Source: CBDBIG01 sp965205845 [NCBI: bacterium]
GTDB taxonomy: Bacteria; SAR324
DNA length: 64,000 nt
NCBI GenBank assembly: GCA_965205845.1
Contig: CBDBIG010000003.1
Location: forward strand, 620,001 to 684,000
Reading direction: 5' to 3'
Shown here: piece by piece, positions 1 to 50,280 of the stretch
Position numbering within the stretch: position 1 is the stretch's first letter
Layout of the letters: each line of letters begins with the position of its first letter
Position numbers and translations under genes: made by a program
The notes under the pieces: generated by a model
Told to the model about the DNA's origin: nothing
What the model saw: the letters and a program-made list of their open reading frames with translations, nothing else
Database searches by the model: none

Positions 1-714
1 TCCAGAAATTCTCTTACTATCGGTATCAAGAGCTGCCATATCGCAGAACGTAATTGTCTGAGCCTTATTGGGAGGGCATTTAGGATTCACAGTGGCGAGG
101 TTTGAAATACTGACAAGTTGTTTATTGCCATCATGTTTCATCATTTTTTCATATCGCAATACAGACAAACTTCGATCTGCCTGCACTAATGCCTGCACAT
201 ATTGAAAAAGATTGTCTTCAATCTTCTCAAATACCTCCAGCATTTCCTCCTGCCGTGGGCGGGGCGGCAGCGGGAATTCCTGTCTAGCTAAAGTTTTCCA
301 TTTGATTGTCGGGGATAAAGAACCTTCTGAGATGGCAATCGCTCTGTTCATAAATAAACCTGACTGCATAAAAAATGGAAGAAACCCATGAATAATTAAA
401 TCTCCTTTAGGCCTAAGGACCATCCCATGGGCAGAAAAAATTCCATCAAATGGAGCAACCGCAACCCTTTTTAGATACGCGTTGCGTTTAGCAAAAAGAA
501 TATCTCCTTTCTTCATCTCGAGTTTCTGTCCCTTAAGGACAATATCGGCACCCCATTTGGAAATCCGGATGCTACCTGAGTCTAAGTGCTCCAGGCCAAT
601 ATATCGGTCACTATCCTCTGCTGTTGGGTTTACTCTTTTTGAAATTTGGTCTGCAACATCCCCAAATTTAACGATGCGCCAGCCTTCTGCTTTTTGTTTC
701 TTTGTTAACCGCAT
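1..714 (-). CDS. hsdS: Type I restriction-modification specificity subunit HsdS (partial, C-terminus off window)
   Basis: The frame starts with ATG at 714, six bases after the hsdM stop, and stays open for 238 codons to the left edge. HsdS gives the methylase and nuclease complex its DNA target through two target-recognition domains (TRDs). Residues 1-145 form TRD1, followed by the conserved linker with EFPLPPRPRQEEM and a helical spacer; TRD2 is only begun. The first 166 or so codons are identical to the plus-strand hsdS at 4270, and the remainder is unrelated. It follows two hsdM genes in the same direction, so this is probably the expressed hsdS, with hsdR expected further left. Family assignment is firm; that it is the active copy is inferred from position. 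Confidence 0.9.
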   Translation of the reverse strand, partial: MRLTKKQKAEGWRIVKFGDVADQISKRVNPTAEDSDRYIGLEHLDSGSIRISKWGADIVLKGQKLEMKKGDILFAKRNAYLKRVAVAPFDGIFSAHGMVLRPKGDLIIHGFLPFFMQSGLFMNRAIAISEGSLSPTIKWKTLARQEFPLPPRPRQEEMLEVFEKIEDNLFQYVQALVQADRSLSVLRYEKMMKHDGNKQLVSISNLATVNPKCPPNKAQTITFCDMAALDTDSKRISG

Positions 715-747
715 CGTCTCTTAGGCCTCATACCCCAATGCTTTCAA
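215..747 (-). repeat. Left arm of a perfect 533-bp inverted repeat (partner 4237-4769)
   Basis: I compared this arm base by base with the reverse complement of 4237-4769 and found no mismatch. It covers the last 27 bases of hsdM, the 6-base spacer, the hsdS start, all of TRD1, the central linker and about 30 bases beyond. The segment between the arms (748-4236) holds most of hsdM1, all of hsdM2 and their presumed promoter, so recombination across the arms would invert the expression unit. Confidence 0.95.
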
Positions 748-2208
748 GCTCTCGAACAGCTTGCTTGTTTGCTTTTTCAAAAGCGCGCGCGCGCTTTTCC
801 AATCCTCAATCGCAGCTTCCAAATCCTGTTCCTCGTCATCGGTGTCTTTGCCGTTTTTGGCCATGACATAAAGCGGGATCGACAGGTTGTATAAATTGTC
901 TTTGACCTCATCTAAATCGACCAAGCGCGCAATATCCGGGTGGTCTTCGGGCCCAAAATACGCCTCCAGGAGCTTCTCCAAATTATCGTCGGATAAAAAG
1001 CTGGTGGCCCGTTTGCGGGTGACTTCATGCACGCCGTTGACAAACACAATCTTGTTTTTGCGGTCTTTCGTTTTGTTCTGGCGCAAAACCACCACGCAGG
1101 ATTCCATCGGGCTGTTGTAAAACAGGTTTGGCCCCAGACCGATGACGGCCTCAATCAGGTCGCTGGCAATGACGCCTTTGCGGATGCCTTCTTCTTGATC
1201 GCGGAAGAGCACCCCATGCGGCCAAAGCATCGCAGCGCGGCCCGTTTTTGGGTTTAAGCTCTTCATAATATGCTGGAAAAAGGCATAGTCAGCGCAGCCC
1301 TGTGGCGGCACACCATGCATATTGCGTCCGTAAAGATCAGAGCCAAATGCCTTGCGATCCCATTTCTTGATGGAGTATGGCGGGTTGGCAAAAATCACAT
1401 CAAATTGCTGGAGCTTATCGTCGCGTGTGAATTTTGGCTCTTTTAGCGTATCACCACGCGCTATTTCAAATTCCTCAATATCGTGGAGGAGCATGTTCAT
1501 CTTGGCAATCGCCGAGGTGAGCAAGTTTACCTCTTGCCCGTAGAGTTTAACGTTGCGCCATTCACGGTCGCCTTTACGTAAATCTATGACGGCGTTCAGC
1601 AGCATGCCCCCGGTCCCACAGGTCGGGTCATAAGCCGTTTCACCCGGTTGAAGGCCGAGGATGCGCGTCATCAGGTGGACAACGGTGCGGTTGGTATAAA
1701 ACTCAGCAGCCGTATGGCCGGAATCATCTGCAAATTGCTTGATCAGATATTCATAGGCATTGCCCAGATCATCTTGTTCAATGTCTTTCACGCCAAGCGG
1801 GATTTGGCTGAAATGGTTGATCAACGATACCAGTAAGTGGTCCGGCAGACGCTCTTTGTTCGTCCATACGGCATCACCAAACACGCCATAAAGGCGTGGG
1901 TTGGATGTTTCGACGGCACCCAGGGCACCCTTTAAAACCTTGCCAACATCCTTGGTTGTGGATTGCACCACATTCCAGCAGGCATTGTCAGGAATGATAA
2001 AGCGGTGCTGTTCAGGCTTTTTGGCGATCTGGTCATCCTCATAAAGCGCAAGCGCTTTTGTATATTCTTCCTGATAGACATCATTCATGCGCTTGTAGAA
2101 CAGCAGCGGGAAGATGTATTGCTTGTAATCGGAGGCTTCAATTTGGCCGCGCAGCAAGACAGCTGCGCCCCAGAGTAAATCTTCCAGTTGTTTTTGGGTA
2201 ATGCTCAT
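721..2208 (-). CDS. hsdM: Type I restriction-modification methyltransferase subunit HsdM, copy 1
   Basis: This 495-residue protein is an N6-adenine DNA methyltransferase subunit that forms M2S1 with HsdS and transfers methyl groups from S-adenosylmethionine. Visible parts are an N-terminal helical domain with the family signature SDYKQYIFPLLFYKRMND, then EFYTNRTVVHLM, motif I DPTCGTGG near residue 194 and catalytic motif IV NPPY near 275. Its ATG overlaps the stop of the upstream hsdM by four bases (ATGA), so the two are translationally coupled. The 3' end belongs to the 533-bp inverted repeat. It is clearly a paralogue of its neighbour, not a recent copy. Confidence 0.95.
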   Translation of the reverse strand: MSITQKQLEDLLWGAAVLLRGQIEASDYKQYIFPLLFYKRMNDVYQEEYTKALALYEDDQIAKKPEQHRFIIPDNACWNVVQSTTKDVGKVLKGALGAVETSNPRLYGVFGDAVWTNKERLPDHLLVSLINHFSQIPLGVKDIEQDDLGNAYEYLIKQFADDSGHTAAEFYTNRTVVHLMTRILGLQPGETAYDPTCGTGGMLLNAVIDLRKGDREWRNVKLYGQEVNLLTSAIAKMNMLLHDIEEFEIARGDTLKEPKFTRDDKLQQFDVIFANPPYSIKKWDRKAFGSDLYGRNMHGVPPQGCADYAFFQHIMKSLNPKTGRAAMLWPHGVLFRDQEEGIRKGVIASDLIEAVIGLGPNLFYNSPMESCVVVLRQNKTKDRKNKIVFVNGVHEVTRKRATSFLSDDNLEKLLEAYFGPEDHPDIARLVDLDEVKDNLYNLSIPLYVMAKNGKDTDDEEQDLEAAIEDWKSARALLKKQTSKLFESLKALGYEA

Positions 2209-3701
2209 AGTTCGAAACCCTCCTTGGTCAGCAAAACCTCTAATTCATCTTCTGCCTGCTCAAGGTCGGCCAGTTTCCGTTTGAAGTCTTTCAGGGCTTC
2301 TTCAACCGTGAGCGTCTCTTCCTCAAGCGGCTTTTGCACGTAACGCGCAATGTTTAGGTTGAAGTCGTTTTCTTCAATTTCGCTGAGAGGAACCCATCGA
2401 CTGACACCTTCGATTTCTTCTGAAGCTTCATGCTGGCGTTTGTAAATGGCGTAAATTTCATCGGCTTGCGTTTCGCTCATGGTGTTTTGAGCGCGGCCTT
2501 TGGTATAAATTTCATCGGCATTGATGAATAAGACTTCTTTACGTTTCAGCGTTTTTTGATCTTTACGAAGGACGATTACACAGGCGGATATGCCAGTACC
2601 GTAGAACAGGTTTTTTGCCAGCCCAATCACACATTCCAAAGTACCATTCCTGATAAGCGCCTCGCGGATTTTGGCTTCTGAACTGCCCCTAAATAGCACG
2701 CCATGTGGCACAACCATGGCCATCCGGCCAGTATCGTCGCGCATGGATGAATACATGTGCATGACCCATGCAAAATCGCCGTTTTTCTTGGGCGCAATAC
2801 CATAAACATGGCGGTTATATTGATCGGCACTCCAGCTGTCGTGTCCCCAGTCTTCAAGACTGAATGGAGGGTTCGCGATCACGCAGTCGAATGTCTCCAG
2901 CGTGTCGCCATTTGTGAATTTAGGATCGCGCAGCGTATCACTGCGAATGATCTCAAAATCTTCCATACCATGCAAAAACAGGTTCATACGGGCGATGGCT
3001 TCGGTTGTAAGGTTTTTCTCCTGACCTTTGAGCTTCAACAATCTTGGGTCTTCGCCGCGTTCTTGAACGTGGTGAATGGTCTCGAGCAACATACCGCCAG
3101 TACCGCAGGCCGGGTCATAAACAACGTCATTAGCTTTGGGATCAAGGACATTCACCATCAGCCGAACAACTGTCCGTGGCGTATAGAATTCGCCCGCTTT
3201 TTTGTTGGCTTTGTCGGCAAATTTTTTGATCAGATATTCATACGCCCGGCCCATATCATCATCACGGACATCCTTCAAGCCCATTGGAATCTGGTGGAAG
3301 TGGTTTAACAATTCCGTGATCAGGCTATCAGGCAGTCTGTCCTTATTGGTCCAAGGCGCATCACCGAATATGCCATACAAGTGCAGATTGGCTTGCTCGA
3401 CGCATCGGAAGGCACTTTGCAGGGCTTTCCCGACATCTTTCGTGGTCGCCAGCACATCACTCCAACGCCAACCTTTGGGAATTTGAATCCGGTGCTGCTC
3501 AGGGGCATGGGCAAGATCTGCATCACCATAAAGTTCGAGCGCCTCTTCAAACTCCTCGTTGTAGACATCGTTAATCCGCTTAAAAAATAGGATTGGGAAG
3601 ATATAGGTTTTGTAATCGGACGCGTCGATGGGGCCGGTAATAATATGCGCGGCCATCCAGAGTTGGTGCTCGAATTCTTTGAGGGATAGCCTTTTATGCA
3701 T
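2205..3701 (-). CDS. hsdM: Type I restriction-modification methyltransferase subunit HsdM, copy 2 (upstream gene)
   Basis: A second full HsdM of 498 residues from the ATG at 3701, which has AAGGTG at good spacing; the frame extends to an ATG at 3791 but that would add 30 atypical residues. It has EFYTPRTVVRLM, motif I DPACGTGG near residue 196 and motif IV NPPF near 277, so both catalytic motifs are intact. It is the first gene of the minus-strand hsdM2-hsdM1-hsdS unit. The two proteins are similar over their whole length yet diverged, so they could form a mixed M1M2S complex or serve different S subunits. Only the family is certain. Confidence 0.93.
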   Translation of the reverse strand: MHKRLSLKEFEHQLWMAAHIITGPIDASDYKTYIFPILFFKRINDVYNEEFEEALELYGDADLAHAPEQHRIQIPKGWRWSDVLATTKDVGKALQSAFRCVEQANLHLYGIFGDAPWTNKDRLPDSLITELLNHFHQIPMGLKDVRDDDMGRAYEYLIKKFADKANKKAGEFYTPRTVVRLMVNVLDPKANDVVYDPACGTGGMLLETIHHVQERGEDPRLLKLKGQEKNLTTEAIARMNLFLHGMEDFEIIRSDTLRDPKFTNGDTLETFDCVIANPPFSLEDWGHDSWSADQYNRHVYGIAPKKNGDFAWVMHMYSSMRDDTGRMAMVVPHGVLFRGSSEAKIREALIRNGTLECVIGLAKNLFYGTGISACVIVLRKDQKTLKRKEVLFINADEIYTKGRAQNTMSETQADEIYAIYKRQHEASEEIEGVSRWVPLSEIEENDFNLNIARYVQKPLEEETLTVEEALKDFKRKLADLEQAEDELEVLLTKEGFEL

Positions 3702-4206
3702 CCATTTCACCTTAATAGTATCTTTAGTCTCTCCTGCTCCGATATTCAGCAGAACTATGTTGCCCTTCCAAAACCGCCCGGTAAATCCCATGATATCCCG
3801 CTATATCCTTAGTGGTGTAAAAGCATGGGGACGGGGACGCTCTGTTCCACGCTGCTTTAAGGTTGTAGTATGTGCGTGGTAAACACCTGGCGAGTCACGC
3901 GTTGAATCGAGGCACCTAGTTGATTTTAAGCGGGTATCGATGTTTTGATAGCCGCAGATCGATTTGGGCAATATTTTGAATGGCACTTTGCCCTCGGGCA
4001 GCGAGGGATGCGATGAGCAATGCCATGCCTGAATGCAACACTGCTTTTTTAAATACCCCCTTGTGCCAGCCTAAAAATAAAAAAAGCGGCCCCGTGCCCT
4101 TAAGGGCGCTACCTTTAAAAAACCATTCATGGGGGAGTACTGTGCCCTTTGACGACTCATTTTTGCAACCGTCGAAAAGCAAAATCCTGTTTTATAGTTT
4201 GATAAT
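3702..4206. promoter_or_regulatory. Intergenic region upstream of the hsdM pair, presumed promoter region
   Basis: I see no convincing gene here. The region must hold the promoter for the leftward hsdM2-hsdM1-hsdS unit and lies inside the invertible segment, so promoter and hsdM genes would flip together. It contains a 12-bp perfect palindrome GCCCTTAAGGGC at 4096-4107. It also has ATCCCGCTATAT followed by AAGCATGGGGACGGG (about 3795-3835), a combination that recurs at about 47713-47765. No promoter hexamers stand out clearly. Confidence 0.45.
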
Positions 4207-4331
4207 ATCTGCCGCGTGAGGCGCAAGATGTGCTGATTGAAAGCATTGGGGTATGAGGCCTAAGAGACGATGCGGTTAACAAAGAAACAAAAAGCAGAAG
4301 GCTGGCGCATCGTTAAATTTGGGGATGTTGC
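4207..4331 (+). repeat. 125-bp direct repeat, first copy (second copy 5517-5641)
   Basis: The repeat is made of codons 33-47 of hsdR fused in the wrong context to the last 24-27 bases of hsdM, then the hsdM-hsdS spacer and the first 21 codons of hsdS. The join of hsdR to hsdM lies at TTGAAAGC, a short sequence present in both genes. It shows that the plus-strand cassettes were built from pieces of the hsdM-hsdS-hsdR operon. The period between copies is 1310 bp. Confidence 0.9.
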
Positions 4332-4769
4332 AGACCAAATTTCAAAAAGAGTAAACCCAACAGCAGAGGATAGTGACCGATATATTGGCCTGGAGCACTT
4401 AGACTCAGGTAGCATCCGGATTTCCAAATGGGGTGCCGATATTGTCCTTAAGGGACAGAAACTCGAGATGAAGAAAGGAGATATTCTTTTTGCTAAACGC
4501 AACGCGTATCTAAAAAGGGTTGCGGTTGCTCCATTTGATGGAATTTTTTCTGCCCATGGGATGGTCCTTAGGCCTAAAGGAGATTTAATTATTCATGGGT
4601 TTCTTCCATTTTTTATGCAGTCAGGTTTATTTATGAACAGAGCGATTGCCATCTCAGAAGGTTCTTTATCCCCGACAATCAAATGGAAAACTTTAGCTAG
4701 ACAGGAATTCCCGCTGCCGCCCCGCCCACGGCAGGAGGAAATGCTGGAGGTATTTGAGAAGATTGAAGA
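4237..4769 (+). repeat. Right arm of the 533-bp inverted repeat (partner 215-747)
   Basis: This arm is identical to the reverse complement of 215-747. At the outer ends of the arms identity stops abruptly: GATTGAAAGC here against GCTTGAAAGC in hsdM at one side, and GAAGATCAAC against GAAGACAATC at the other. Its presence at the head of the plus-strand cassette array lets the hsdM pair be joined to either hsdS set by inversion. Confidence 0.95.
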
Positions 4770-5433
4770 TCAACTGTTTTCGCATGAGGAAAGCATAGAA
4801 GCTGCACAACAATGCAAGAGATCAATTTCCTTTGAACATAGCAGTGATGATTTTATGAAAAAAAGAGTGTCTGAAATCTGCACAAAAGTGACAAGCGGAG
4901 GTACTCCAAGCCGATCAAAGAAAGAGTACTACAATGGAGATATTTTGTGGATTAAAACTCAAGAGCTTAATGATTACTACATAACTGATACTGAAGAAAA
5001 GATAACAGAATTGGGATTGAATAATTCATCCGCGAAGTTGTTTGAAAAAGATACTGTTTTAATGGCTATGTATGGAGCTACAGTTGGAAAGCTAGGTATT
5101 CTGGCTAAGAGTGCGACATCCAATCAAGCCTGTTGTGCCATGATTCTCAATCAGGAAATAATGTTACCTGAATATCTTTATCACAGTTTATTAAACATGC
5201 GTTCTTACTTAAAAAACATTGCAACTGGGGCTGCACAAAAAAATATTAGCAATAAAATTATTTCTAATCTTGAGATTCCTTGCCCCTCTATTGAGGAGCA
5301 AGAGAGGTTTATTAATGCAATAAAGTATTTTGATGAACTGATCATATTAAGTCAAAAGAAAATGACGCACTTAAATCAGATAAAAAGAAAGATGATATCA
5401 GATATCTTAAGGAGGCAGCATGAGCGGATTTAA
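4270..5433 (+). CDS. hsdS: Type I restriction-modification specificity subunit HsdS, second copy
   Basis: A complete HsdS of 387 residues. TRD1 (1-145) is identical to that of the left-edge hsdS. The central linker EFPLPPRPRQEE lies at 145-156, and TRD2 (about 195-370) is unlike the other two copies, with the usual TSGGTPSR and GAAQKNISNKI elements. The end LRRQHERI overlaps the following hsdR start by 14 bases. No hsdM stands upstream in the same direction (only the hsdM 3' end), so in the present orientation it is probably silent. It would be placed directly behind the hsdM genes by inversion across the 533-bp repeats. Confidence 0.93.
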   Translation: MRLTKKQKAEGWRIVKFGDVADQISKRVNPTAEDSDRYIGLEHLDSGSIRISKWGADIVLKGQKLEMKKGDILFAKRNAYLKRVAVAPFDGIFSAHGMVLRPKGDLIIHGFLPFFMQSGLFMNRAIAISEGSLSPTIKWKTLARQEFPLPPRPRQEEMLEVFEKIEDQLFSHEESIEAAQQCKRSISFEHSSDDFMKKRVSEICTKVTSGGTPSRSKKEYYNGDILWIKTQELNDYYITDTEEKITELGLNNSSAKLFEKDTVLMAMYGATVGKLGILAKSATSNQACCAMILNQEIMLPEYLYHSLLNMRSYLKNIATGAAQKNISNKIISNLEIPCPSIEEQERFINAIKYFDELIILSQKKMTHLNQIKRKMISDILRRQHERI

Positions 5434-5517
5434 CGAAGCCAATACGATCGAAAAAGCCATCGGCGACCGTCTGTCTGCATTGCCGGGGCTGAAATGGACC
5501 CTTGTGCGTGGGGCTGA
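5405..5517 (+). repeat. 113-bp direct repeat (second copy 6745-6857): hsdS end plus hsdR start
   Basis: The two copies differ by one base (G at 5465, A at 6805). They span the hsdS 3' end with its AAGGAGG ribosome-binding site and the first 32 codons of hsdR. Together with the 125-bp repeat they bracket each hsdS cassette with homology on both sides, as expected for recombination arms. Confidence 0.92.
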
Positions 5518-5566
5518 TCTGCCGCGTGAGGCGCAAGATGTGCTGATTGAAAGCATTGGGGTATGA
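5420..5566 (+). pseudogene. hsdR: Truncated start of HsdR (type I restriction subunit), 48 codons
   Basis: The ATG at 5420 follows AAGGAGG closely and overlaps the hsdS end. The product would read SGFNEANTIEKAIGDRL, then WTLVRGADLPREAQDVLIES; I recognise the N-terminus of type I restriction subunit R (which normally runs to about 1000 residues). After codon 47 the frame enters the hsdM 3' end and stops at TGA 5564-5566. It cannot provide nuclease or translocase activity. It is most likely a homology arm left by cassette duplication. Confidence 0.85.
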
Positions 5567-5579
5567 GGCCTAAGAGACG

Positions 5580-6773
5580 ATGCGGTTAACAAAGAAACAA
5601 AAAGCAGAAGGCTGGCGCATCGTTAAATTTGGGGATGTTGCGCAAGAAATCAAAGCCAGCACAAAAGACCCACCCTCCGAGGGGATTGAGTTCTATATCG
5701 GGCTGGAACATATCGATCCAAAATCCCTGCGACTGGCACGCTGGGGATCAATCGCCGAGGATAGTCCAGCATTCACAAAGAAATTCAGCGCCGGTGACAT
5801 TTTATTTGGCCGCCGCCGCGCTTATTTGAAAAAGGCTGCCGTGGCTGATTTTGACGGCATATGCTCTGGCGATATTATTGTGATTGCGCCCAAAGGCGAT
5901 GCGCTTGTACAAGACCTTTTGCCGTTTATCGTGCAATCCAAGCCGTTTTTTGACTGGGCCGTAAAACATTCCGCTGGCGGTCTATCTCCACGTACAAAGT
6001 TCAAATCACTGGCCGAGTTTGAATTCCCGCTGCCGCCCCGCCCACGGCAGGAGGAGATTTTAAAATTACTACAACGAATAGAGGATGTGCGAAAAAACAA
6101 TAACGATAGGCAAATAAATTTTACTCAAGTGAAAAGGGCTGTAATTCAAAATATCCTTAAATCGGATTATAAGAATATGTCACTGCGAGAAGTTTCTGAC
6201 GTCATCGCAAGTCCTGTAAACAAAAAATCTGTCAAAGGTGAACCCCCTGTTCAACTATGCAATTACATGGACGTTTATTCGAATAATAAAATCCATAGCC
6301 AAATACCCTTTATGCAGGCTACTGCATCGGTGAGTGAAATATCACGATTTACCCTTCAAAAAGGTGATGTGGTTATAACAAAAGACTCTGAAGATCCTTA
6401 TGATATTGCTGTTCCGTCATTCATCTCTGAAGAAGTCAAAAATCTAGTATGCGGCTATCATTTGGTGATTTTGAGACCAAAAAACAATTTGATTGAAGGA
6501 AGATATTTATTTCATCTTCTAAATAGCCATTGGTCGAGGCATAGGTTTTACTGTTATGCACAAGGAACAACTCGATATGGCATCGTATCTGATGCCTACG
6601 ATAAAATTAAAATTCCTATCCCTCATTTAGATAAACAATGTGTTTGTGCTGATATTTTAGATGCACTTAATGATCAGTTCGAAATTGTTAGCAATAGAGA
6701 TAATGTTTACAGATCAATCCAGAGAAAAATTATAAATAAAATATTCTTAAGGAGGCAGCATGAGCGGATTTAA
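5580..6773 (+). CDS. hsdS: Type I restriction-modification specificity subunit HsdS, third copy
   Basis: A complete 397-residue HsdS. Only the first 21 codons, a 35-bp core at 6021-6055 coding for EFPLPPRPRQEE, and the last codons (LRRQHERI) match the copy at 4270. TRD1 (about 22-147) and TRD2 (about 195-380) are both different. It lacks its own hsdM and is followed by another broken hsdR start, so it appears to be a silent store of two further recognition modules. The shared 5', middle and 3' blocks could let half-genes be exchanged separately. Confidence 0.92.
   Translation: MRLTKKQKAEGWRIVKFGDVAQEIKASTKDPPSEGIEFYIGLEHIDPKSLRLARWGSIAEDSPAFTKKFSAGDILFGRRRAYLKKAAVADFDGICSGDIIVIAPKGDALVQDLLPFIVQSKPFFDWAVKHSAGGLSPRTKFKSLAEFEFPLPPRPRQEEILKLLQRIEDVRKNNNDRQINFTQVKRAVIQNILKSDYKNMSLREVSDVIASPVNKKSVKGEPPVQLCNYMDVYSNNKIHSQIPFMQATASVSEISRFTLQKGDVVITKDSEDPYDIAVPSFISEEVKNLVCGYHLVILRPKNNLIEGRYLFHLLNSHWSRHRFYCYAQGTTRYGIVSDAYDKIKIPIPHLDKQCVCADILDALNDQFEIVSNRDNVYRSIQRKIINKIFLRRQHERI
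6021..6055 (+). repeat. 35-bp hsdS central core shared by all three hsdS copies
   Basis: The same 35 bases occur at 4705-4739 and, reversed, at 246-280. They encode the linker between the two TRDs. Flanking sequence differs between the third copy and the other two, so this core could act as a crossover point for exchanging single TRDs. Confidence 0.85.
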
Positions 6774-6918
6774 CGAAGCCAATACGATCGAAAAAGCCAT
6801 CGGCAACCGTCTGTCTGCATTGCCGGGGCTGAAATGGACCCTTGTGCGTGGGGCTGAAAAGTACACTATTAGATGGTGGTCCCTCGTGCATCATGTAAAT
6901 TTATCCGCCATTTTTTAA
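6760..6918 (+). pseudogene. hsdR: Second truncated HsdR start, 32 hsdR codons then unrelated sequence
   Basis: It repeats the hsdR N-terminus with one change (Asp16 to Asn). After GGGGCTGA at 6857 the homology ends, and the frame runs through 20 unrelated codons to TAA at 6916-6918. Position 6857 is therefore the right border of the hsd cassette array. No functional restriction subunit is encoded on this side. Confidence 0.85.
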
Positions 6919-15745: not shown

Positions 15746-16357
15746 ATGGTGAACAAGCATTTATGGTGGTGCTTTAATCCGATAAAGCGCATGAAATGCA
15801 GCCAGCAGAGTAAATTGTGGCAAGGTAGCCTTGCCTGCTTGGTGGCGGTACTTCTGGGCATGGGTTACCATCAGCATAGGTTTGGCAGCCTGCAAGCCGA
15901 TCCCACCAGACAACCCTTTGATGGCCTTGCTGCGATGCGCTTGTTGGAAGGAAACATGCAACTTGCTCAGACCAGATTGCCACCCTTACCCCCCGCCAAA
16001 AAAAAGCCCCAGGCTGCTGAAAAACCCCCTGTGGGCGATCCGCCTGCCCAGCAATCCGTTAGTGTCTATTCCATGTGGATTGATCTATCGTTGCAGGGCT
16101 ATAGCCAAGAGGAAATTGAAGCGACGCTTAATGTGCCTCCCGATGCCCTCGAAAAGCTCAAGCAACGTCTGCGCAAGCAGGTCATGAGCAACCTTAACCT
16201 CCGAAATGCCAAAAAGCGTTTGGAAAATAGCCGTGATGTGGACGATGTAAGCACTGTGCTCCGTTGGATTCGCCTAGAAATACGCTTTGCGGGGATGCAA
16301 AACGACGCCGTGTTGCGCGAAATGATTCGCAACCACTTTGGGATTGCACTGCTCTAA
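15746..16357 (+). CDS. Small membrane-anchored protein of unknown function
   Basis: The 203-residue frame (or 188 from the ATG at 15791) starts with a basic stretch and one hydrophobic segment, LACLVAVLLGMGYH, then a Pro and Lys rich linker and a helical C-terminal half. The part with YSQEEIEATLNVPPDALEKL looks like a small helix-turn-helix or TPR-like element, but I cannot assign it. It is followed directly by a 19-bp minisatellite. Confidence 0.6.
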   Translation: MVNKHLWWCFNPIKRMKCSQQSKLWQGSLACLVAVLLGMGYHQHRFGSLQADPTRQPFDGLAAMRLLEGNMQLAQTRLPPLPPAKKKPQAAEKPPVGDPPAQQSVSVYSMWIDLSLQGYSQEEIEATLNVPPDALEKLKQRLRKQVMSNLNLRNAKKRLENSRDVDDVSTVLRWIRLEIRFAGMQNDAVLREMIRNHFGIALL

Positions 16358-16392
16358 CCAGCAACAGCGATCCCTCCAAAAGCCCACCTGCT

Positions 16393-16558
16393 GTGCTCGT
16401 TTTGGCGTGCCGTGCTCGTTTTGGCGTGCCGTGCTCGTTTTGGCGTGCCGTGCTCGTTTTGGCGTGCCGTGCTCGTTTTGGCGTGCCGTGCTCGTTTTGG
16501 CGTGCCGTGCTCGTTTTGGCGTGCCGTGCTCGTTTTGGCGTGCCGTGCTCGTTTTGGC
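16393..16558. repeat. Tandem array of a 19-bp unit, nine copies
   Basis: The unit GTGCTCGTTTTGGCGTGCC starts at 16393 and recurs every 19 bases; the last copy is incomplete at its end. Internal copies are identical. No spacers separate them, so this is a minisatellite and not a CRISPR array. All six frames through it are open only because 19 is not a multiple of three and the unit lacks stops. It sits between the convergent ends of the unknown gene and purQ. Confidence 0.97.
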
Positions 16559-16605
16559 TGGAATACGCGAAAAAAAAGGGACAAGCCCCAAGCCTTGGTT
16601 TTTTG

Positions 16606-22101: not shown

Positions 22102-24336
22102 TTACACGGGTAATTTAACATGCAACACCGTAGCCCCCGGAAAAAACCGTTGCAAGGCTTTGATTTGGGGGTCATTTTTGGCGTGTTCTTCTAAGGCTTT
22201 TCGTTGCTGCTCTTTTTGGAGGTTTTGTTGCACGGAAAGGGTGTGTTGGTTGCGGATTTCCTCGGTAGGTTTGGCATGCCTTAGTTGCAATCCAAAACCT
22301 GCTCCAAAAACCTGCTGGGCATAACCCTGGACCAGTGCTTCCTCTTCAGGGGATAAAGCGCCCAAACGGGCTTGAAACACGGCTTCCCCTTGATTGGCAT
22401 TGAGCGTGCGCACCTCAGCATTCCTAAGGCGCATGATGAGACCACGGTGCTTGTTTTGGCGTACCAGGTCTACCAGGGCAATCCAGCGCGAATCGTTGCA
22501 AAAAATACCCTCCTGCATTTGGGTAGGGTGAGTCCGTTCGCTGGGTGCTGTCCATTCTTTTACAGCGTTGTCGACGTTTCCATCTGCGCGGGTTGTTGGC
22601 GGTGGGTGAGTGTTTTTGCCCGCCGCAGGGGTGTTGGGGCTGTTTTCTTTTGTCTCATAGGCCTCCATGGGAGGGAGTGGATCCCTTTTGGCTACAAAAT
22701 CGACCGTGTTTCCATCTGCGCGGGTTGTTGGCGGTGGGTGAGCGTTTTTGCCCGCCGCAGGGGTGTTGGGGCTGTTTTCTTTTGTCTCATAGGCCTCTAT
22801 GGGAGGGAGTGGATCCCTTTTGGCTACAAAATCGACCGTGTTTCCATCTGCGCGGGTTGTTGGCGGTGGGTGAGCGTTTCTGCCCGCCGCAGGGGTGTTG
22901 GGGCTGTTTTCTTTTGTCTCATAGGCCTCCATGGGAGGGAGTGGATCCCTTTTGGCTACAAAATCGGTGGAGGAGGGTGTTGTGCCACGAGTCGCCGGAT
23001 TAGGGGCGTGAGAAGGGTTTTTTTTTGACGCCGATTTAGAGCCCATTGAGGGCACGGTAGCCATGGGTTTTGCTGAGGCTTGGTTTGTGCTAAAAGATTT
23101 GGCCTGTTGCGCCAATGCTTGTACCTTTTGCCGGCTTGTACGGGAATCCCGGGTTGGGGCGGAAGGAGGGGGGTCTGGTCTTTGCTGTGTGCTTGGCGGG
23201 GGGTTGTTGCCCAGGTGAGTGGCAGCTTGCAAAAGTTCGGGGATGCCTTGCAAATTCTCCAAATTGCAGGCCTGTAGCAAGCACATATCAAGGCAGATGT
23301 TGCGATGATCGCTCCATTTCAACAATTGTTCGGTTTCAAGCAACAGGTAAAACAGCTGCTGAAGCACGCTTAGCGCTGGTGCCAAGGCGATCAATTCTGG
23401 CGCGAGTTTTTCGATGGCCCCTGGGCGTTCTTGCCCACCAAGGGCAACCTGGGTCGAAAGCACACTGGTGGTTTTGACCAAGTTTTCCAGCAGCAATTCG
23501 GGGCGCATCCCATACTCAAGTGCTTGACTGCTAAGCCTAAGGGCGGCGGCGGCATCTTTTTGGAAGACCGCCTGTAAAATGTCCTGTGCCTCGTTAGCAC
23601 CCGAAAAACCAAGGGCTTGCATCATTTGGTCTTCATCCACACTGCTATCAACAAAGGCAGCAGCACGTTCTAGGCTCATCAAGGCATCGCGCATGCCACC
23701 ACCCGAACGCGATGCAACCAATTCAATCACCTTACAAGGCAAGTTCAAGCCCTCTTTTTGTGCCACCTCGGTTAGGTGAGTGGTAAGACGCTCCAAAGGC
23801 ATGCGCATAAAATTAAAGCACTGGCAGCGTGATAAAATGGTGGCGGGGATTTTTTGTGGGTCGGTGGTTGCGAGTACAAATTTGACTCGCGCGGGAGGCT
23901 CTTCCAAGGTTTTAAGCAGGGCATTAAAGGCCTCTTGGGTGAGCATGTGGGCTTCGTCAATAATGTATACCTTGTACTGCAGCCGCACGGGCAGAAAACG
24001 CACGTTTTCGCGAATATCACGAATGTTATCCACCCCACGGTTCGAGGCAGCATCAATCTCAATCACATCAGGGGAAGCACCTTGCTCAACTTCTTGGCAG
24101 GAAGAGCATGCGTTGCAGGGCTCACCTTCTTCAGGTTTTTGGCAGTTGAGTGCCTTGGCCAAAATGCGTGCAGCACTGGTTTTTCCCACGCCTTGGGATC
24201 CCGAAAACAGCAGAGCATGGGCCGTTTTTTGGCTGTGTACCGCTTGCTTAAGCGTTTGCGCCAAAGCCTCTTGCCCTAAAAGACCGGCAAAGCGTTTTGG
24301 GCGTAACTTGCGCGGAAGCACCAAATGCGTCGACAT
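22102..24336 (-). CDS. dnaX: DNA polymerase III subunit tau (and possibly gamma)
   Basis: Clamp-loader ATPase of 744 residues. The AAA+ core (about 1-235) has Walker A SGSQGVGKTS, a four-Cys zinc module (CNACSSC with the preceding CQ) and the DEAH box in IIDEAHMLT with the sensor SRC. Domain III follows to about 365. The linker to the tau-specific C-terminus (about 600-744) is Pro and Thr rich and contains three in-frame copies of a 44-residue repeat (about 456-587). A run of nine A at codons 437-440 is placed where gamma ends in other bacteria. It heads dnaX-ybaB-recR and lies downstream of the SRP RNA gene. Confidence 0.95.
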   Translation of the reverse strand: MSTHLVLPRKLRPKRFAGLLGQEALAQTLKQAVHSQKTAHALLFSGSQGVGKTSAARILAKALNCQKPEEGEPCNACSSCQEVEQGASPDVIEIDAASNRGVDNIRDIRENVRFLPVRLQYKVYIIDEAHMLTQEAFNALLKTLEEPPARVKFVLATTDPQKIPATILSRCQCFNFMRMPLERLTTHLTEVAQKEGLNLPCKVIELVASRSGGGMRDALMSLERAAAFVDSSVDEDQMMQALGFSGANEAQDILQAVFQKDAAAALRLSSQALEYGMRPELLLENLVKTTSVLSTQVALGGQERPGAIEKLAPELIALAPALSVLQQLFYLLLETEQLLKWSDHRNICLDMCLLQACNLENLQGIPELLQAATHLGNNPPPSTQQRPDPPPSAPTRDSRTSRQKVQALAQQAKSFSTNQASAKPMATVPSMGSKSASKKNPSHAPNPATRGTTPSSTDFVAKRDPLPPMEAYETKENSPNTPAAGRNAHPPPTTRADGNTVDFVAKRDPLPPIEAYETKENSPNTPAAGKNAHPPPTTRADGNTVDFVAKRDPLPPMEAYETKENSPNTPAAGKNTHPPPTTRADGNVDNAVKEWTAPSERTHPTQMQEGIFCNDSRWIALVDLVRQNKHRGLIMRLRNAEVRTLNANQGEAVFQARLGALSPEEEALVQGYAQQVFGAGFGLQLRHAKPTEEIRNQHTLSVQQNLQKEQQRKALEEHAKNDPQIKALQRFFPGATVLHVKLPV
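22576..22971 (-). repeat. Three in-frame 132-bp tandem repeats inside dnaX
   Basis: Units start at 22576, 22708 and 22840 and differ by only a few bases (for example Met/Ile and Arg/Lys changes). Each encodes 44 residues including DFVAKRDPLPPMEAYETKEN and AHPPPTTRADG. The repeat lies in the flexible linker between the AAA+ part and the tau C-terminus, so copy-number change would lengthen the linker without shifting the frame. Confidence 0.95.
23018..23026 (-). other. A9 homopolymer in dnaX, candidate slippage site for gamma
   Basis: On the coding strand TCA AAA AAA AAC covers codons 437-440. One extra A, or a -1 ribosomal shift, gives KKKPFSRP and then TAA, a product of about 445 residues that ends just after domain III. 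Loss of one A also ends soon, after about 22 codons. E. coli gamma is 431 residues and is made at A AAA AAG, and Thermus uses an A9 run by transcriptional slippage. This is inference from position and sequence. Confidence 0.5.
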
Positions 24337-25186: not shown

Positions 25187-25717
25187 TTAAGCCATCATGC
25201 CCCTTTGTTTGAGGGTGGCATGGAGTTCGGGCATGGTGAGGCGACTGCCCTTAAGGGAATTGCAAAAATGGCAGAGCAGTTGGAGGTTTTCATCGGTATT
25301 TGCCCCGCCTTTGGCGGTGGGTATAATGTGGTCTTTGGTCAAATTTTGGTAGGGAAAATCGCGTTTGCAACCCTTGCAATAGCCGCGCTGCCTGCCGAAC
25401 AACAGACGTTTGATATCGCGGCTGGGCTTGGAGGCGTGGCGAATGGGGATATCGGTGCGATGAATCACGCGGCCTAAAAGGGCGGGGTTTGCCTCATCCC
25501 CCAAATTTACCTCGCGGCGCATGCGGTCTTTCACCAGTTGAAGGGCCAATTCGCTGATGTCAATCCCAATCCATTGGCGCCCTAAAATCTCGGCGGCAAT
25601 GCAGGTGGTGGCACAGCCGCAAAAGGGGTCAAGCACCATGTCATCTGGGTTGCTGCTGGCCTTAATAATCCGCTCCAACAAAGCCAAGGGCTTTTGGGTG
25701 GGGTAACCCGTGCGTTC
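25186..25717 (-). repeat. 532-bp direct repeat, 3' arm of copy A (copy B: 26563-27094)
   Basis: I found no differences with 26563-27094 on reading. The arm covers the HNH domain and the motif I part of the methyltransferase and stops sharply after ACCCGTGCGTTC, at the border of the recognition region. The offset between copies is 1377 bp. Confidence 0.93.
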
Positions 25718-26443
25718 GTTGGGAGATATGTGCCCACCAGAGGGAATGTCTATCCAGTAGTTTTCGGGGATTTTCCCCCTTTGCACATAAGCCTGGCGTA
25801 CCTCAGGGTTTTGCAGTGTGCCGCTGCTTTGCCAAAGTTTAGAATTTATGCCTTTGTCGCTATGCAACGCTTTGTAGGGAATGCGCACGGCATCGGCATT
25901 AAATACCCAGTGCTCGCCTTTTGAAAACCATAAAATCACGTCTTTTTTCTTAGGGAAATTCTTTTTTACCCCACTAGGCCCCGTATAGCACCAAGCAATC
26001 TCGTTTCTAAAATTGTCTGCCCCAAAAATGGCGTCGAGCAGCAACTTTAAGCCGTGGCTCATGGTGGGATCGCAGTGCAGGTATAGACTGCCCGTTTTTT
26101 TTAAAATGCGCTGCATTTCTAAAATGCGCACCGCCATGTAGATCAAGTAAGCCTTGGCCCCCGCCCCGCCGACAGCACCTGCGGCATCAATCACTTTGTA
26201 AAGGGCAGGGTGTACTTCGGCAATCTCCCCCCACCAGGCATCGTCGGTGTCTTCAAAGGTCCAGGCATCTTTAAAGGCTGCCCCTGCTGCCGCACTCCCA
26301 ATGGGTGCTGCGTAGTTACGATTTGAATTAAACGGTGGGTCCAGGTAAACAAGGTCCACACTGGCAGAGTCCATGCCTCGCAAAATGGGCAGGTTGTCGC
26401 CGCTAAAAATGCTGCGGTTTAGGATTTGAGCGGCTGGAGGCAT
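25187..26443 (-). CDS. DNA methyltransferase with C-terminal HNH nuclease-like domain, copy A
   Basis: A 418-residue site-specific amino-methyltransferase. Motif IV DPPF (35-38) comes before motif I DPFCG (about 272), the beta-class order, so the central part (about 150-240) is the target-recognition region. Residues about 340-395 form an HNH-like domain with CKGC, LTKDHIIPTAKGG, NLQLLCHFCNSLKG; the key Asp-His, Asn and Cys pairs are present. The start is the ATG at 26443: upstream sequence is shared with copy B but contains a one-base indel, so a longer N-terminus cannot be conserved. Apart from the recognition region it is identical to copy B. Recognition sequence unknown. Confidence 0.9.
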   Translation of the reverse strand: MPPAAQILNRSIFSGDNLPILRGMDSASVDLVYLDPPFNSNRNYAAPIGSAAAGAAFKDAWTFEDTDDAWWGEIAEVHPALYKVIDAAGAVGGAGAKAYLIYMAVRILEMQRILKKTGSLYLHCDPTMSHGLKLLLDAIFGADNFRNEIAWCYTGPSGVKKNFPKKKDVILWFSKGEHWVFNADAVRIPYKALHSDKGINSKLWQSSGTLQNPEVRQAYVQRGKIPENYWIDIPSGGHISPNERTGYPTQKPLALLERIIKASSNPDDMVLDPFCGCATTCIAAEILGRQWIGIDISELALQLVKDRMRREVNLGDEANPALLGRVIHRTDIPIRHASKPSRDIKRLLFGRQRGYCKGCKRDFPYQNLTKDHIIPTAKGGANTDENLQLLCHFCNSLKGSRLTMPELHATLKQRGMMA

Positions 26444-26562
26444 CAATGCTTTGACTTTGTGCGGCGAAGAGGGGTTTTTTGAGGCCTCGAACGGGAAATG
26501 GTATTCGTCTATGATGATACAACAAGGCTTGTGGCAATGGCAAAGGTGGGGAACAACGCCTT
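25996..26562 (-). repeat. 567-bp direct repeat, 5' arm of copy A (copy B: 27355-27922)
   Basis: It covers the N-terminal catalytic part plus about 120 bases upstream of the start. The only difference I see is one base near 26513 (TATGATGAT against TATAGATGAT). The arm ends at AACAACGCCTT, immediately before the 3' end of copy B. Confidence 0.93.
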
Positions 26563-26563
26563 A

Positions 26564-27802
26564 TTAAGCCATCATGCCCCTTTGTTTGAGGGTGGCATGG
26601 AGTTCGGGCATGGTGAGGCGACTGCCCTTAAGGGAATTGCAAAAATGGCAGAGCAGTTGGAGGTTTTCATCGGTATTTGCCCCGCCTTTGGCGGTGGGTA
26701 TAATGTGGTCTTTGGTCAAATTTTGGTAGGGAAAATCGCGTTTGCAACCCTTGCAATAGCCGCGCTGCCTGCCGAACAACAGACGTTTGATATCGCGGCT
26801 GGGCTTGGAGGCGTGGCGAATGGGGATATCGGTGCGATGAATCACGCGGCCTAAAAGGGCGGGGTTTGCCTCATCCCCCAAATTTACCTCGCGGCGCATG
26901 CGGTCTTTCACCAGTTGAAGGGCCAATTCGCTGATGTCAATCCCAATCCATTGGCGCCCTAAAATCTCGGCGGCAATGCAGGTGGTGGCACAGCCGCAAA
27001 AGGGGTCAAGCACCATGTCATCTGGGTTGCTGCTGGCCTTAATAATCCGCTCCAACAAAGCCAAGGGCTTTTGGGTGGGGTAACCCGTGCGTTCTTTATC
27101 GGTTGAGCCAATATAAGAAATTTCCCACGTATCACGCATATTAACAAGATTATATACCCCTTTTTGATCCTTAAAGAATTGTGCGCTGCCACCGCCATAA
27201 TTCACAACGCCCTCTTTGCGGTTTTTTGCTTTTGTATAGGACTTTTCTTTTTGGGGGATAAAAATATATTCAACCGTTTTACTGTAAAACAAAATAACAT
27301 CATGCTTTTTGGAAAAATATCCTTTAGAACTTCCACCTGTCTTGTATCCCCACACAATCTCGTTTCTAAAATTGTCTGCCCCAAAAATGGCGTCGAGCAG
27401 CAACTTTAAGCCGTGGCTCATGGTGGGATCGCAGTGCAGGTATAGACTGCCCGTTTTTTTTAAAATGCGCTGCATTTCTAAAATGCGCACCGCCATGTAG
27501 ATCAAGTAAGCCTTGGCCCCCGCCCCGCCGACAGCACCTGCGGCATCAATCACTTTGTAAAGGGCAGGGTGTACTTCGGCAATCTCCCCCCACCAGGCAT
27601 CGTCGGTGTCTTCAAAGGTCCAGGCATCTTTAAAGGCTGCCCCTGCTGCCGCACTCCCAATGGGTGCTGCGTAGTTACGATTTGAATTAAACGGTGGGTC
27701 CAGGTAAACAAGGTCCACACTGGCAGAGTCCATGCCTCGCAAAATGGGCAGGTTGTCGCCGCTAAAAATGCTGCGGTTTAGGATTTGAGCGGCTGGAGGC
27801 AT
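26564..27802 (-). CDS. DNA methyltransferase with C-terminal HNH nuclease-like domain, copy B
   Basis: Of 412 residues from the ATG at 27802. N-terminal catalytic part and C-terminal motif I plus HNH parts are identical to copy A, but residues about 150-235 are unrelated (GGSSKGYFSKKHDVIL then YIFIPQKEKSYTKAKN). An open frame continues to an ATG at 27931, adding 43 residues; the matching stretch of copy A has a one-base indel, so I reject that start. The recognition region of B is more A+T rich and Lys and Tyr rich than the rest of the gene, which suggests import from another source. The two genes probably modify different sequences. Confidence 0.9.
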   Translation of the reverse strand: MPPAAQILNRSIFSGDNLPILRGMDSASVDLVYLDPPFNSNRNYAAPIGSAAAGAAFKDAWTFEDTDDAWWGEIAEVHPALYKVIDAAGAVGGAGAKAYLIYMAVRILEMQRILKKTGSLYLHCDPTMSHGLKLLLDAIFGADNFRNEIVWGYKTGGSSKGYFSKKHDVILFYSKTVEYIFIPQKEKSYTKAKNRKEGVVNYGGGSAQFFKDQKGVYNLVNMRDTWEISYIGSTDKERTGYPTQKPLALLERIIKASSNPDDMVLDPFCGCATTCIAAEILGRQWIGIDISELALQLVKDRMRREVNLGDEANPALLGRVIHRTDIPIRHASKPSRDIKRLLFGRQRGYCKGCKRDFPYQNLTKDHIIPTAKGGANTDENLQLLCHFCNSLKGSRLTMPELHATLKQRGMMA

Positions 27803-28152
27803 CAATGCTTTGACTTTGTGCGGCGAAGAGGGGTTTTTTGAGGCCTCGAACGGGAAATGGTATTCGTCTATAGATGATACAACAAGGCTTGTGGCAATGG
27901 CAAAGGTGGGGAACAACGCCTTTTGGGGCATCGGATGCCGTTTTTAGCGTGCCCTTCACAGATTGGGTTTGACGTTGCAAGACCCTTTGGCATAGCATCA
28001 CGGTGAGTGCTGACATTTAAAATCGCAAAAAGCGGGGTGCCTTTTTTTCGGATAATCCCGTCGCTGAGGGTCTCCTCAGCAATGCCCGCCAACAGCCAAG
28101 CGACCTCCACTATCACCCTAATGCAGAGCGTGTTTCCCACGTCAAAATTTCG
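27803..28152. other. Intergenic region upstream of methyltransferase copy B
   Basis: The first 120 bases (to 27922) are part of the duplicated unit and carry the presumed start region of both methyltransferases. From 27923 to 28152 the sequence is unique. I see no RNA gene or clear promoter. Confidence 0.4.
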
Positions 28153-33104: not shown

Positions 33105-33106
33105 CA

Positions 33107-33349
33107 ATGGCTGAGGAGACGCCAAAGCCCTGGGGGATGATGTTTGATTTTAATGAGGAGACGCCAAAGCCCTGGGGGATGATGTTTGATTTTAATGAGG
33201 AGACGCCAAAGCCCTGGGGGATGATGTTTGATTTTAATGAGGAGACGCCAAAGCCCTGGGGGATGATGTTTGATTTTAATGAGGAGACGCCAAAGCCCTG
33301 GGGGATGATGTTTGATTTTAATGAGGAGACGCAAAGCCCTGGGGGATGA
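33107..33349 (+). other. Open frame of 80 codons made of 14-residue repeats (doubtful gene)
   Basis: Starting two bases after the phoH stop, ATG GCT leads into five and a half copies of EETPKPWGMMFDFN, because the first units are 42 bp, a multiple of three. A one-base loss in the sixth unit ends the frame soon after. No ribosome-binding site is visible. I think it is a by-product of the array, although a translated repeat peptide cannot be excluded. Confidence 0.2.
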
Positions 33350-33440
33350 TGTTTGATTTTAATGAGGAGACGCAAAGCCCTGGGGGATGATGTTTGATTT
33401 TAATGAGGAGACGCAAAGCCCTGGGGCATGATGTTTGATC
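33113..33440. repeat. Tandem array of a 42/41-bp unit, eight copies
   Basis: Units start at 33113, 33155, 33197, 33239, 33281 (42 bp) and 33323, 33364, 33405 (41 bp, lacking one C). Copies are otherwise identical except for the last, which has GGGGCATGATG and ends at GATCAG. There are no spacers. The array begins 8 bases after the phoH stop. The rest of the gap to 33612 holds a short GGGGCC triplication (about 33449-33467) and nothing else recognised. Confidence 0.97.
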
Positions 33441-41468: not shown

Positions 41469-41743
41469 GCTGCATGTCCTTGATAAATTTTGTGAGCTCT
41501 TGCAAGGGCTTGGCGGGCTTCGGGTAAAATGTGCGGTTGGTTCTGCCACGCATGAATCGCTCCTTGCCACACGGCTTACCTTAACCTTGCTCTAGCGAAT
41601 GGCTTCGGGCTTTGTTTTAGGCATGCTGCGTGTCCTTGATAAATTTTGTGAGCTCTTGAAGGGCTTGGCGGGCTTCGGGTAAAATGTGCGGTTGGTTCTG
41701 CCACGCATGAATCGCTCCTTGCCACACGCTTACCTTAACCTTG
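41437..41743 (-). repeat. Tandem duplication of about 153 bp at the esterase-glycosyltransferase junction
   Basis: Copy 1 is 41437-41589 and copy 2 is 41593-41743. They differ by two single-base indels (GCAAGGGC/GAAGGGC, CACGGCTT/CACGCTT) and one substitution. Copy 2 holds the real 3' end of the esterase gene plus the sequence before it. Copy 1 carries a frameshifted replica of that 3' end and the true start of the glycosyltransferase. The start ATGCCTAAAACAAAG is also present in copy 2. Confidence 0.9.
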
Positions 41744-42546: not shown

Positions 42547-42872
42547 GTTGCCGAGCGAGACCTTTTTTATTTTTTTGATGTAACACCCTCGTTTCACATA
42601 CGATGCACCATCATCCCATACACACATGGGAGCGAAGGGCAGTCGCACCAGTAATGAACAAGGTGTGTCGAACAGAATCCACGGGCATTCTACGCAAATA
42701 AAGCACCATGAACAAGCGCAAATTTTTTACGTCTGTATACGACCGCGGGTTTTAAAAAATCAACATGCTTTACAACAACCATGGGACAGTGGGGGTTGGT
42801 TTGGTGAACGCCGCACCTTTTCATCGATTTTCACCTTGATTCAAAAACCAAACCCACAAGGGGGTTGTTGCC
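42547..42872. other. Divergent intergenic region between the esterase and priA
   Basis: Promoters for both directions should be here. I see no RNA gene, repeat or clear hexamer pair; the stretch is A+T richer than the flanking genes. Confidence 0.4.
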
Positions 42873-50269: not shown

Positions 50270-50280
50270 GGTGCATTTTT

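What the first reader, a model, noticed from the sequence alone, without database searches (positions are those of the whole stretch)
215..4769. Invertible hsdM pair: a 533-bp perfect inverted repeat joins one promoter-hsdM unit to alternative hsdS genes
The arms 215-747 and 4237-4769 are identical and end exactly around hsdM 3' end, hsdS TRD1 and the central linker. Inversion across them would turn hsdM2-hsdM1 and their promoter to read the plus-strand hsdS at 4270. This differs from the usual case, where hsdS segments invert and hsdM stays put. In the present orientation the left hsdS, with hsdR expected beyond the edge, would be expressed. In the inverted state the expressed hsdS would be followed only by a broken hsdR, giving modification without restriction or use of HsdR from elsewhere. 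That would be a switch between a restricting and a non-restricting state as well as between specificities.
Basis: partly seen in the sequence, partly recalled or inferred. Interest (0 to 1): 0.88.

Follow-up and report, generated by a model that had tools for sequence, protein, structure and literature searches.

The report
Restriction system with inverted spare specificity genes
A bacterial DNA-marking and DNA-cutting gene set carries two spare, intact target-choosing genes next to it in the opposite direction, in a layout that could let the cell swap which DNA sequence it marks and perhaps uncouple cutting from marking, though no swap has been seen.

Summary
The repeat is real: 215-747 and 4237-4769 are perfect 533-bp inverted copies. 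They join a two-methyltransferase type I operon (hsdM1 2205-3791, hsdM2 721-2208, hsdS-A cut by base 1; all minus) to plus-strand hsdS-B (4270-5433). A third intact hsdS, C (5580-6773), shares a perfect 95-bp inverted arm. The proteins are closest to PacII M1, M2 and S: a non-canonical m6A/m4C type I system. Each spare unit is [hsdM2 3' end]-[whole hsdS]-[hsdR 5' end]. Block 4207-6857 is exactly two periods long, both ends at the same hsdR base, which points to insertion of an excised circle. In 14 related loci I recognised no second hsdS and no inverted repeats; 10 have hsdR downstream of hsdS, so hsdR is expected left of base 1, but it was not seen. No recombinase appeared in 47 of 48 window ORFs scanned. 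Switching is plausible, not shown. A new variant of inverting type I systems.

The parts
1..714 (-). hsdS-A, the hsdS in the operon position after hsdM2 (first 238 codons; rest beyond the window edge)
   Evidence: 3open ORF; alignment: identical to hsdS-B through TRD1
721..2208 (-). hsdM2, PacII M2-type (AAEF / NPPY) subunit, predicted m4C
   Evidence: Pfam; PDB 7vru_B 784.7 bits; motifs at residues 167 and 275; Arg20 aligns with PacII M2 Arg29
2205..3791 (-). hsdM1, PacII M1-type (AGEF / NPPF) subunit, predicted m6A
   Evidence: Pfam; PDB 7vru_A 800.1 bits; motifs at residues 199 and 307
3792..4206 (.). stretch upstream of hsdM1 without a recognised gene; the operon promoter is presumed here, none was recognised
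   Evidence: 0 sigma-70-like sites in 3700-4300
215..747 (-). left arm of the 533-bp perfect inverted repeat
4237..4769 (+). right arm of the 533-bp perfect inverted repeat
653..747 (-). left arm of the 95-bp perfect inverted repeat shared with cassette C
5547..5641 (+). right arm of the 95-bp perfect inverted repeat (start of cassette C)
4207..4244 (+). internal hsdR fragment (starts at about hsdR nt 98, ends at TTGAAAGC) fused to the hsdM2 3' end
4237..4263 (+). 27-bp hsdM2 3' end at the head of cassette B
4270..5433 (+). hsdS-B, complete spare specificity gene (387 aa), TRD1 identical to hsdS-A, different TRD2
5420..5566 (+). hsdR 5' stub of cassette B (48 codons, the first 45 HsdR-like), overlapping the hsdS-B end
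5547..5573 (+). 27-bp hsdM2 3' end at the head of cassette C
5580..6773 (+). hsdS-C, complete spare specificity gene (397 aa), TRD1 80% identical to that of T. mesophila HsdS
6760..6857 (+). hsdR 5' stub of cassette C, ending at the same hsdR base at which 4207 begins
4207..6857 (+). inserted block of exactly two cassette periods (both ends in phase)
   Evidence: chance about 0.002

Best explanation
A non-canonical (PacII-type, m6A/m4C) type I restriction-modification operon, hsdM1-hsdM2-hsdS-A-(hsdR, off the edge), with two complete spare hsdS genes lying upstream in reverse orientation. Origin (inferred): recombination at a short sequence shared by the hsdM2 3' end and the hsdR 5' end (TTGAAAGC) excised or tandemly duplicated hsdS; a circle carrying two hsdS units then inserted upstream of the operon, broken at one point inside its hsdR fragment. 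Working (inferred): homologous or RecA-independent long-repeat recombination, not a dedicated local recombinase, inverts or converts across the perfect arms. The 533-bp arms exchange hsdS-A for hsdS-B (same TRD1, new TRD2: half of the target changes); the 95-bp arms exchange A for C (whole target changes). A single inversion leaves the expressed hsdS followed by a dead hsdR stub and should uncouple restriction from modification; exchange at both the hsdM end and the hsdR end swaps specificity with hsdR kept. Shown: anatomy, family, phase of the insert, intact in-silico products. Not shown: any inversion, expression, hsdR, methylation.
For: Perfect 533-bp and 95-bp inverted arms. Closest solved chains are PacII M1, M2 and S, with the M1 AGEF/NPPF and M2 AAEF/NPPY motifs and the M2 arginine (motif rule from passages of PMC9613975). 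Both spare hsdS ORFs are complete, each with two Methylase_S stretches; hsdS-C TRD1 against T. mesophila HsdS gives dN/dS about 0.10, so it was under constraint for much of that divergence. In-silico inversion at either arm pair gives intact hsdM1, hsdM2 and hsdS-B or hsdS-C. Block ends in phase within 1 nt, chance about 0.002. hsdR lies downstream of hsdS on the same strand in 10 of 14 related loci. Long inverted hsdS repeats recombine without CreX and without RecA in pneumococcus (333-bp repeat in strain G54, PMC6620402 passages), and circular hsdS intermediates are demonstrated in pneumococcal SpnIV (PMC6265443 passages).
Against: No alternative orientation is available: the genome is not held, no viral contig was found by hsdM2 or by the junction sequence, and no plasmid or phage record matched at the DNA level. 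No recombinase among 47 of 48 window ORFs scanned, and the left side is unseen. No sigma-70-like promoter found. None of 14 related loci examined shows the arrangement, so it may be a private accident. hsdR, and whether it has its own promoter, is unseen. The 8-bp shared word is inferred, as this genome's intact hsdR is not visible; T. mesophila differs there.
Confidence: 0.5

Rival explanations
1. Relic: the two-cassette block is a chance insertion of an excised hsdS circle and does not switch; hsdS-A is the only expressed gene and the spare genes are young but idle.
For: Arrangement not seen in any of 14 related loci examined; no recombinase in 47 of 48 ORFs and no recognised promoter; the window has many unrelated short tandem duplications, so duplications may be common and neutral here; the related MAG locus L002 shows hsdR decay.
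Against: Both spare ORFs intact; 533 bp without one mismatch, including a whole TRD, points to recent or continuing exchange.
Confidence: 0.3
2. Gene-conversion store: the cassettes act as donors for non-reciprocal conversion of the expressed hsdS, using homology to hsdM2 on one side and hsdR on the other; hsdM never inverts and restriction stays on.
For: Each cassette carries both flanking homologies (hsdM2 3' end, hsdR 5' end). The identical TRD1 in A and B next to wholly different TRD2 is what conversion of one half would leave.
Against: Inversion across the same arms needs one exchange only; no donor-biased mosaic can be shown without strains.
Confidence: 0.25
3. Site-specific inversion by a dedicated recombinase encoded left of base 1 or elsewhere, as in SpnIII or M. 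pulmonis.
For: Known inverting type I loci often carry a recombinase (PMC7394358 passages). T. mesophila has a large serine recombinase about 1.2 kb upstream of hsdM1.
Against: None in 47 of 48 window ORFs; the insert's ends share at most 1 base, less than the cores of known integrases (recalled); the arms are long homology, not short sites. The T. mesophila enzyme sits beside a locus with no inverted repeats.
Confidence: 0.1
4. Assembly artefact: alleles of different strains were wrongly concatenated or inverted.
For: Repeats of 95-533 bp; source and assembly method unknown; the methyltransferase-HNH pair elsewhere in the window is also a near-perfect duplication.
Against: The joins hsdR|hsdM2 (twice), 4206|4207 and 6857|6858 are new joins that a simple haplotype merge would not create; the different recognition domains sit inside consistent frames.
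Confidence: 0.1

Closest known systems
PacII-type non-canonical type I R-M (M1M2S; PDB 7vru)
   Same: Two adjacent different M subunits with AGEF/NPPF and AAEF/NPPY motifs; best solved match for M1, M2 and S.
   Different: Two extra inverted hsdS cassettes; not recognised in any of the 14 related loci examined here.
Inverting type I systems (SpnIII/ivr/cod of pneumococcus; S. suis, Listeria, and others in the REBASE survey)
   Same: Duplicated hsdS with inverted repeats; one hsdS beside hsdM, others on the opposite strand (PMC7394358, PMC7096588, PMC4783014 passages).
   Different: Here hsdM1-hsdM2 and their upstream region lie between the arms; no recombinase found in the window; whole hsdS units carry hsdM and hsdR ends.
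Mycoplasma pulmonis hsd loci
   Same: Two hsdS per locus and inversions that change or abolish R-M activity (passages of PMC4948785, PMC9465063, PMC11062135). That hsdS genes flank hsdR-hsdM is recalled, not read.
   Different: Dedicated tyrosine recombinase HvsR there; none found here.
Staphylococcus aureus inverted hsdMS copies
   Same: Reversible inversion between inverted hsdM/hsdS copies, reported as not affected by recA (PMC6778178 passages).
   Different: There the inversion spans 1.4 Mb and hsdM is part of both repeats; here the segment is 3.5 kb between arms and holds the only hsdM pair seen.
Pneumococcal SpnIV (tvr) excision-reintegration
   Same: Specificity segments leave as circles through direct repeats and re-enter (PMC6265443 passages); the in-phase block here looks like the trace of a circle.
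   Different: TvrR recombinase and TRD segments there; here whole hsdS units, reverse orientation, no recombinase seen.

Membership tests
PacII-type non-canonical m6A/m4C type I R-M | Two different adjacent M subunits, M1 with AGEF/NPPF and M2 with AAEF/NPPY | tested here: met
   rule from PMC9613975 passages
PacII-type non-canonical m6A/m4C type I R-M | Sequence closest to PacII M1, M2 and S among solved chains | tested here: met
   7vru_A 800 bits, 7vru_B 785 bits, 7vru_C 229 bits (hsdS-B tested, hsdS-C not)
PacII-type non-canonical m6A/m4C type I R-M | M2-specific arginine (PacII R29) | tested here: met
   aligned with Arg20
PacII-type non-canonical m6A/m4C type I R-M | m6A on one strand and m4C on the other | not testable with these tools
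   needs a methylome
Type I restriction-modification system (complete) | hsdR with hsdM and hsdS | tested here: inconclusive
   only hsdR 5' fragments in the window; hsdR lies downstream of hsdS in 10 of 14 related loci
Inverting (phase-variable) type I system | Two or more different hsdS joined by inverted repeats | tested here: met
Inverting (phase-variable) type I system | Only the hsdS beside hsdM is expressed | tested here: inconclusive
   B and C have ATG starts; no sigma-70-like promoter on either strand of 3700-4300
Inverting (phase-variable) type I system | Locus recombinase (common, not universal) | tested here: inconclusive
   none in 47 of 48 window ORFs; left flank unseen
Inverting (phase-variable) type I system | Both orientations observed | not testable with these tools
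   no genome or second record of this organism found
SpnIV-like excision-reintegration | Circular intermediates | not testable with these tools
   only a sequence trace: block of exactly two periods
SpnIV-like excision-reintegration | TvrR-type recombinase at the locus | tested here: inconclusive
   none in 47 of 48 window ORFs; left flank unseen
Mycoplasma pulmonis hsd type | HvsR-driven inversion with hsdR and hsdM between hsdS genes | not tested
   one source paper was asked for and is not held; layout recalled

The most novel reading that the evidence does not exclude
An m6A/m4C type I system whose hsdS travels as an excisable circle bounded by homology to its own hsdM2 and hsdR, with an inverted reserve that lets one flip both change the target (half of it through B, all of it through C) and switch restriction off, so that a cell can pass through a modification-only state before regaining hsdR by a second exchange. 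That ordering would avoid cutting its own unmodified genome during a change of specificity.
Probability: 0.17. Interest if true: 0.8.

Novelty: new variant of a known kind. Interest (0 to 1): 0.52.

Why it matters
A cell that changes type I specificity risks cutting its own DNA before the new sites are methylated. A switch that drops hsdR whenever it changes hsdS in one step, and regains it in a second, would be a simple safeguard. The trace of a circular hsdS insertion also suggests how inverted spare hsdS genes first arise in a locus that has none, and the single-hsdS operon of Thalassospira mesophila gives a before-and-after comparison. It would add the m6A/m4C systems to those with reserve specificities; the literature searches made here listed no such report, which is not proof that none exists.

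Tried and rejected
Site-specific integration as the origin of the block: the two ends share at most one base and there is no target duplication, so an integrase or transposase was not favoured. Terminal repeats of an insertion sequence at 4206 or 6858: none of note. Independent truncation of the two hsdR fragments at the same base: possible but about 0.002 by chance. Search for another orientation or strain: nothing in viral contigs, nothing in plasmids or phages at the DNA level. Rfam: no match in the window. tblastn of hsdM1 in plasmids gave 3462 records, each best place under 60% identity, not followed further. Loci L003-L018 show one place each that matches the M queries, no M1-M2 pair. 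Genomes with a single M match were not examined further, nor was G553, whose two matches lie far apart. A first dN/dS attempt on the hsdR fragments used a wrong frame and was dropped. The organism could not be named.
Full report
What is there. The perfect inverted repeat is confirmed base by base: 215-747 pairs with 4237-4769, 533 bp, no mismatch; a second perfect pair, 653-747 with 5547-5641, 95 bp, ties the same operon to a further hsdS. With mismatches allowed the first pair is 543 nt at 99%. Random sequence of this length would give about 16 bases. On the minus strand run hsdM1 (2205-3791), hsdM2 (721-2208) and hsdS-A (from 714, cut by the window edge); on the plus strand lie hsdS-B (4270-5433) and hsdS-C (5580-6773). 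hsdS-A and hsdS-B are identical through the first recognition domain and the start of the central region and then unrelated; hsdS-C has another first domain, 80% identical in protein to that of Thalassospira mesophila HsdS, and another second domain. hsdS-B and hsdS-C have 38% and 41% G+C, against 48-53% for the other window genes compared.

Which family. hsdM1 and hsdM2 are not recent copies of one subunit. Their best solved matches are the M1 and M2 chains of PacII (7vru_A, 800 bits; 7vru_B, 785 bits), and hsdS-B matches the S chain (229 bits). hsdM1 has AGEF and NPPF, hsdM2 AAEF and NPPY, and PacII M2 Arg29 aligns with Arg20 of hsdM2. By the rule in passages of PMC9613975 these are the m6A (M1) and m4C (M2) subunits of the non-canonical type I group. 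The first description of that group (Morgan 2016) is not held and is cited only through that paper.

Relatives. A scan of public genomes with hsdM2 gave 18 loci, two of them close: L001, Thalassospira mesophila (89%), and L002, an alphaproteobacterial MAG (83% over residues 191-495). I cut out the 12 other loci in which two matches lay close together (11 and one) and compared them, with L001 and L002, with the window proteins: 14 loci in all. hsdR lay downstream of hsdS on the same strand in 10 of 14, next to it in seven and after a gap of 0.6-1.4 kb in three (L064, L065, L067); of the other four, L063 had hsdS but no recognisable hsdR in the stretch, L066 ended soon after hsdS, L068 had neither hsdS nor hsdR recognisable, and L002 had decayed hsdR pieces. 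At most one hsdS was recognised in each of the 14 (tblastn, E up to 1e-6), and no inverted repeat over 60 bp in any (blastn, word 15); a very divergent extra hsdS could be missed. So hsdR is expected left of base 1, and the spare inverted hsdS genes are, in this sample, peculiar to the window.

How the cassettes are built. Each spare unit begins with the last 27 bp of hsdM2 and ends with the first part of hsdR. At the join between B and C the hsdR reading frame (MSGFNEANTIEKAIGDRLSALPGLKWTLVRGADLPREAQDVLIES) runs into the hsdM2 end at TTGAAAGC. The same join stands before B (4207-4263). The block 4207-6857 starts and stops at the same hsdR base within one nucleotide: 4207 and 6857 both correspond to 5517. 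Two independent breaks would agree this well about twice in a thousand. A circle of two units opened at one point and inserted explains it without coincidence. I infer that recombination at TTGAAAGC, shared by hsdM2 and hsdR, made the circle or a tandem array first; this genome's own intact hsdR is not visible, and in T. mesophila the words differ, so the shared word is an inference.

What it would do. In-silico inversion between the long arms leaves hsdM1 and hsdM2 open and sets hsdS-B behind them; inversion at the 95-bp arms sets hsdS-C there. What follows hsdS is then an hsdR stub of 48 codons (B) or one broken off at 6857 (C). But because the cassettes carry both the hsdM2 and the hsdR ends, conversion or a second exchange would swap hsdS and keep hsdR. 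A change A to B alters one half of the target, A to C both halves. None of this has been seen to happen. No recombinase, integrase or transposase appeared among 47 of 48 little-overlapping ORFs of 90 aa or more (ORF list; scans 15, 44, 45, 76, 77, 79; the 115-aa ORF at 42626-42973 was not scanned; searches used NCBIfam at E up to 1e-10, the others Pfam). Long hsdS repeats do recombine without the local recombinase and without RecA in pneumococcus (PMC6620402 passages), so a recombinase is not required. No sigma-70-like promoter was found between 3700 and 4300 on either strand, so the transcription of A, B or C is open.

Signs for and against use. Both spare ORFs are complete. hsdS-C TRD1 against T. 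mesophila HsdS has dN/dS about 0.10, against about 0.05 for hsdM2, both with dS near 1.2; the hsdM1 value (0.017) rests on saturated dS and is not reliable. The 533 identical bases include a whole recognition domain, which implies recent duplication or continued exchange. Against use stand the absence from the relatives examined, the lack of a recombinase or promoter in what was scanned, and the window's many other short tandem duplications, which suggest that duplication is frequent here. I put functional switching at about one half.

Known relatives of the design. Inverting type I loci with duplicated hsdS are well described (PMC7394358, PMC4948785, PMC4783014; passages). Inversions that carry hsdM are not new in principle: S. 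aureus inverts between inverted hsdMS copies (PMC6778178 passages), and in M. pulmonis, as I recall, the two hsdS genes flank hsdR-hsdM; the 1998 paper is not held, and the passages read confirm only the gene numbers, oppositely oriented hsdS genes, inversions, and loss of activity in some states. Circular hsdS intermediates are shown for SpnIV (PMC6265443 passages). New here, as far as the listings and the passages read show, is the combination: a PacII-type M1-M2 pair inside the invertible segment, whole hsdS cassettes with hsdM and hsdR ends, and the in-phase block.

A second case in the same window. Two adjacent methyltransferase-HNH genes (25187-26446, 26564-27931) share 532 bp at 100% and 568 bp at 99.8% and differ in the middle. 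It is the same pattern, duplicate the gene and replace the recognition region, in an unrelated modification system and in direct orientation. That supports a lineage that accumulates alternative specificities, or, less kindly, one whose assembly keeps alleles side by side.

Noticed in passing
window 25187-26446 and 26564-27931 (-): Tandem pair of N6/N4 DNA methyltransferase + HNH endonuclease fusion genes, flanks 532 bp 100% and 568 bp 99.8% identical, only the central (recognition-like) region different: a second duplicated-specificity locus in the same window.
   Followed up: partly
window 56898-57254 (-): A 118-aa fragment of an N6/N4 DNA methyltransferase, not closely related to the pair above.
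   Followed up: partly
window 50280-50562, 51517-52016, 22576-22971, 33070-33427, 16351-16578, 41426-41728: Many tandem duplications, several inside coding genes (132-nt in-frame repeats in dnaX, 84-nt repeats in the ORF at 50558-53056).
   Followed up: no
L001 4257-5909 (-): Thalassospira mesophila has a large serine recombinase about 1.2 kb upstream of hsdM1, on the opposite strand to the operon.
   Followed up: no
L002 2070-2700: In the alphaproteobacterial MAG only decayed pieces of hsdR follow an intact hsdS, a possible modification-only relative.
   Followed up: partly
L063, L064, L065, L066, L067, L070, L071: In several related loci hsdM2 and hsdS, or the two hsdM genes, are separated by about 1.4-3.5 kb of other sequence, unlike the tight operon of the window and T. 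mesophila.
   Followed up: no
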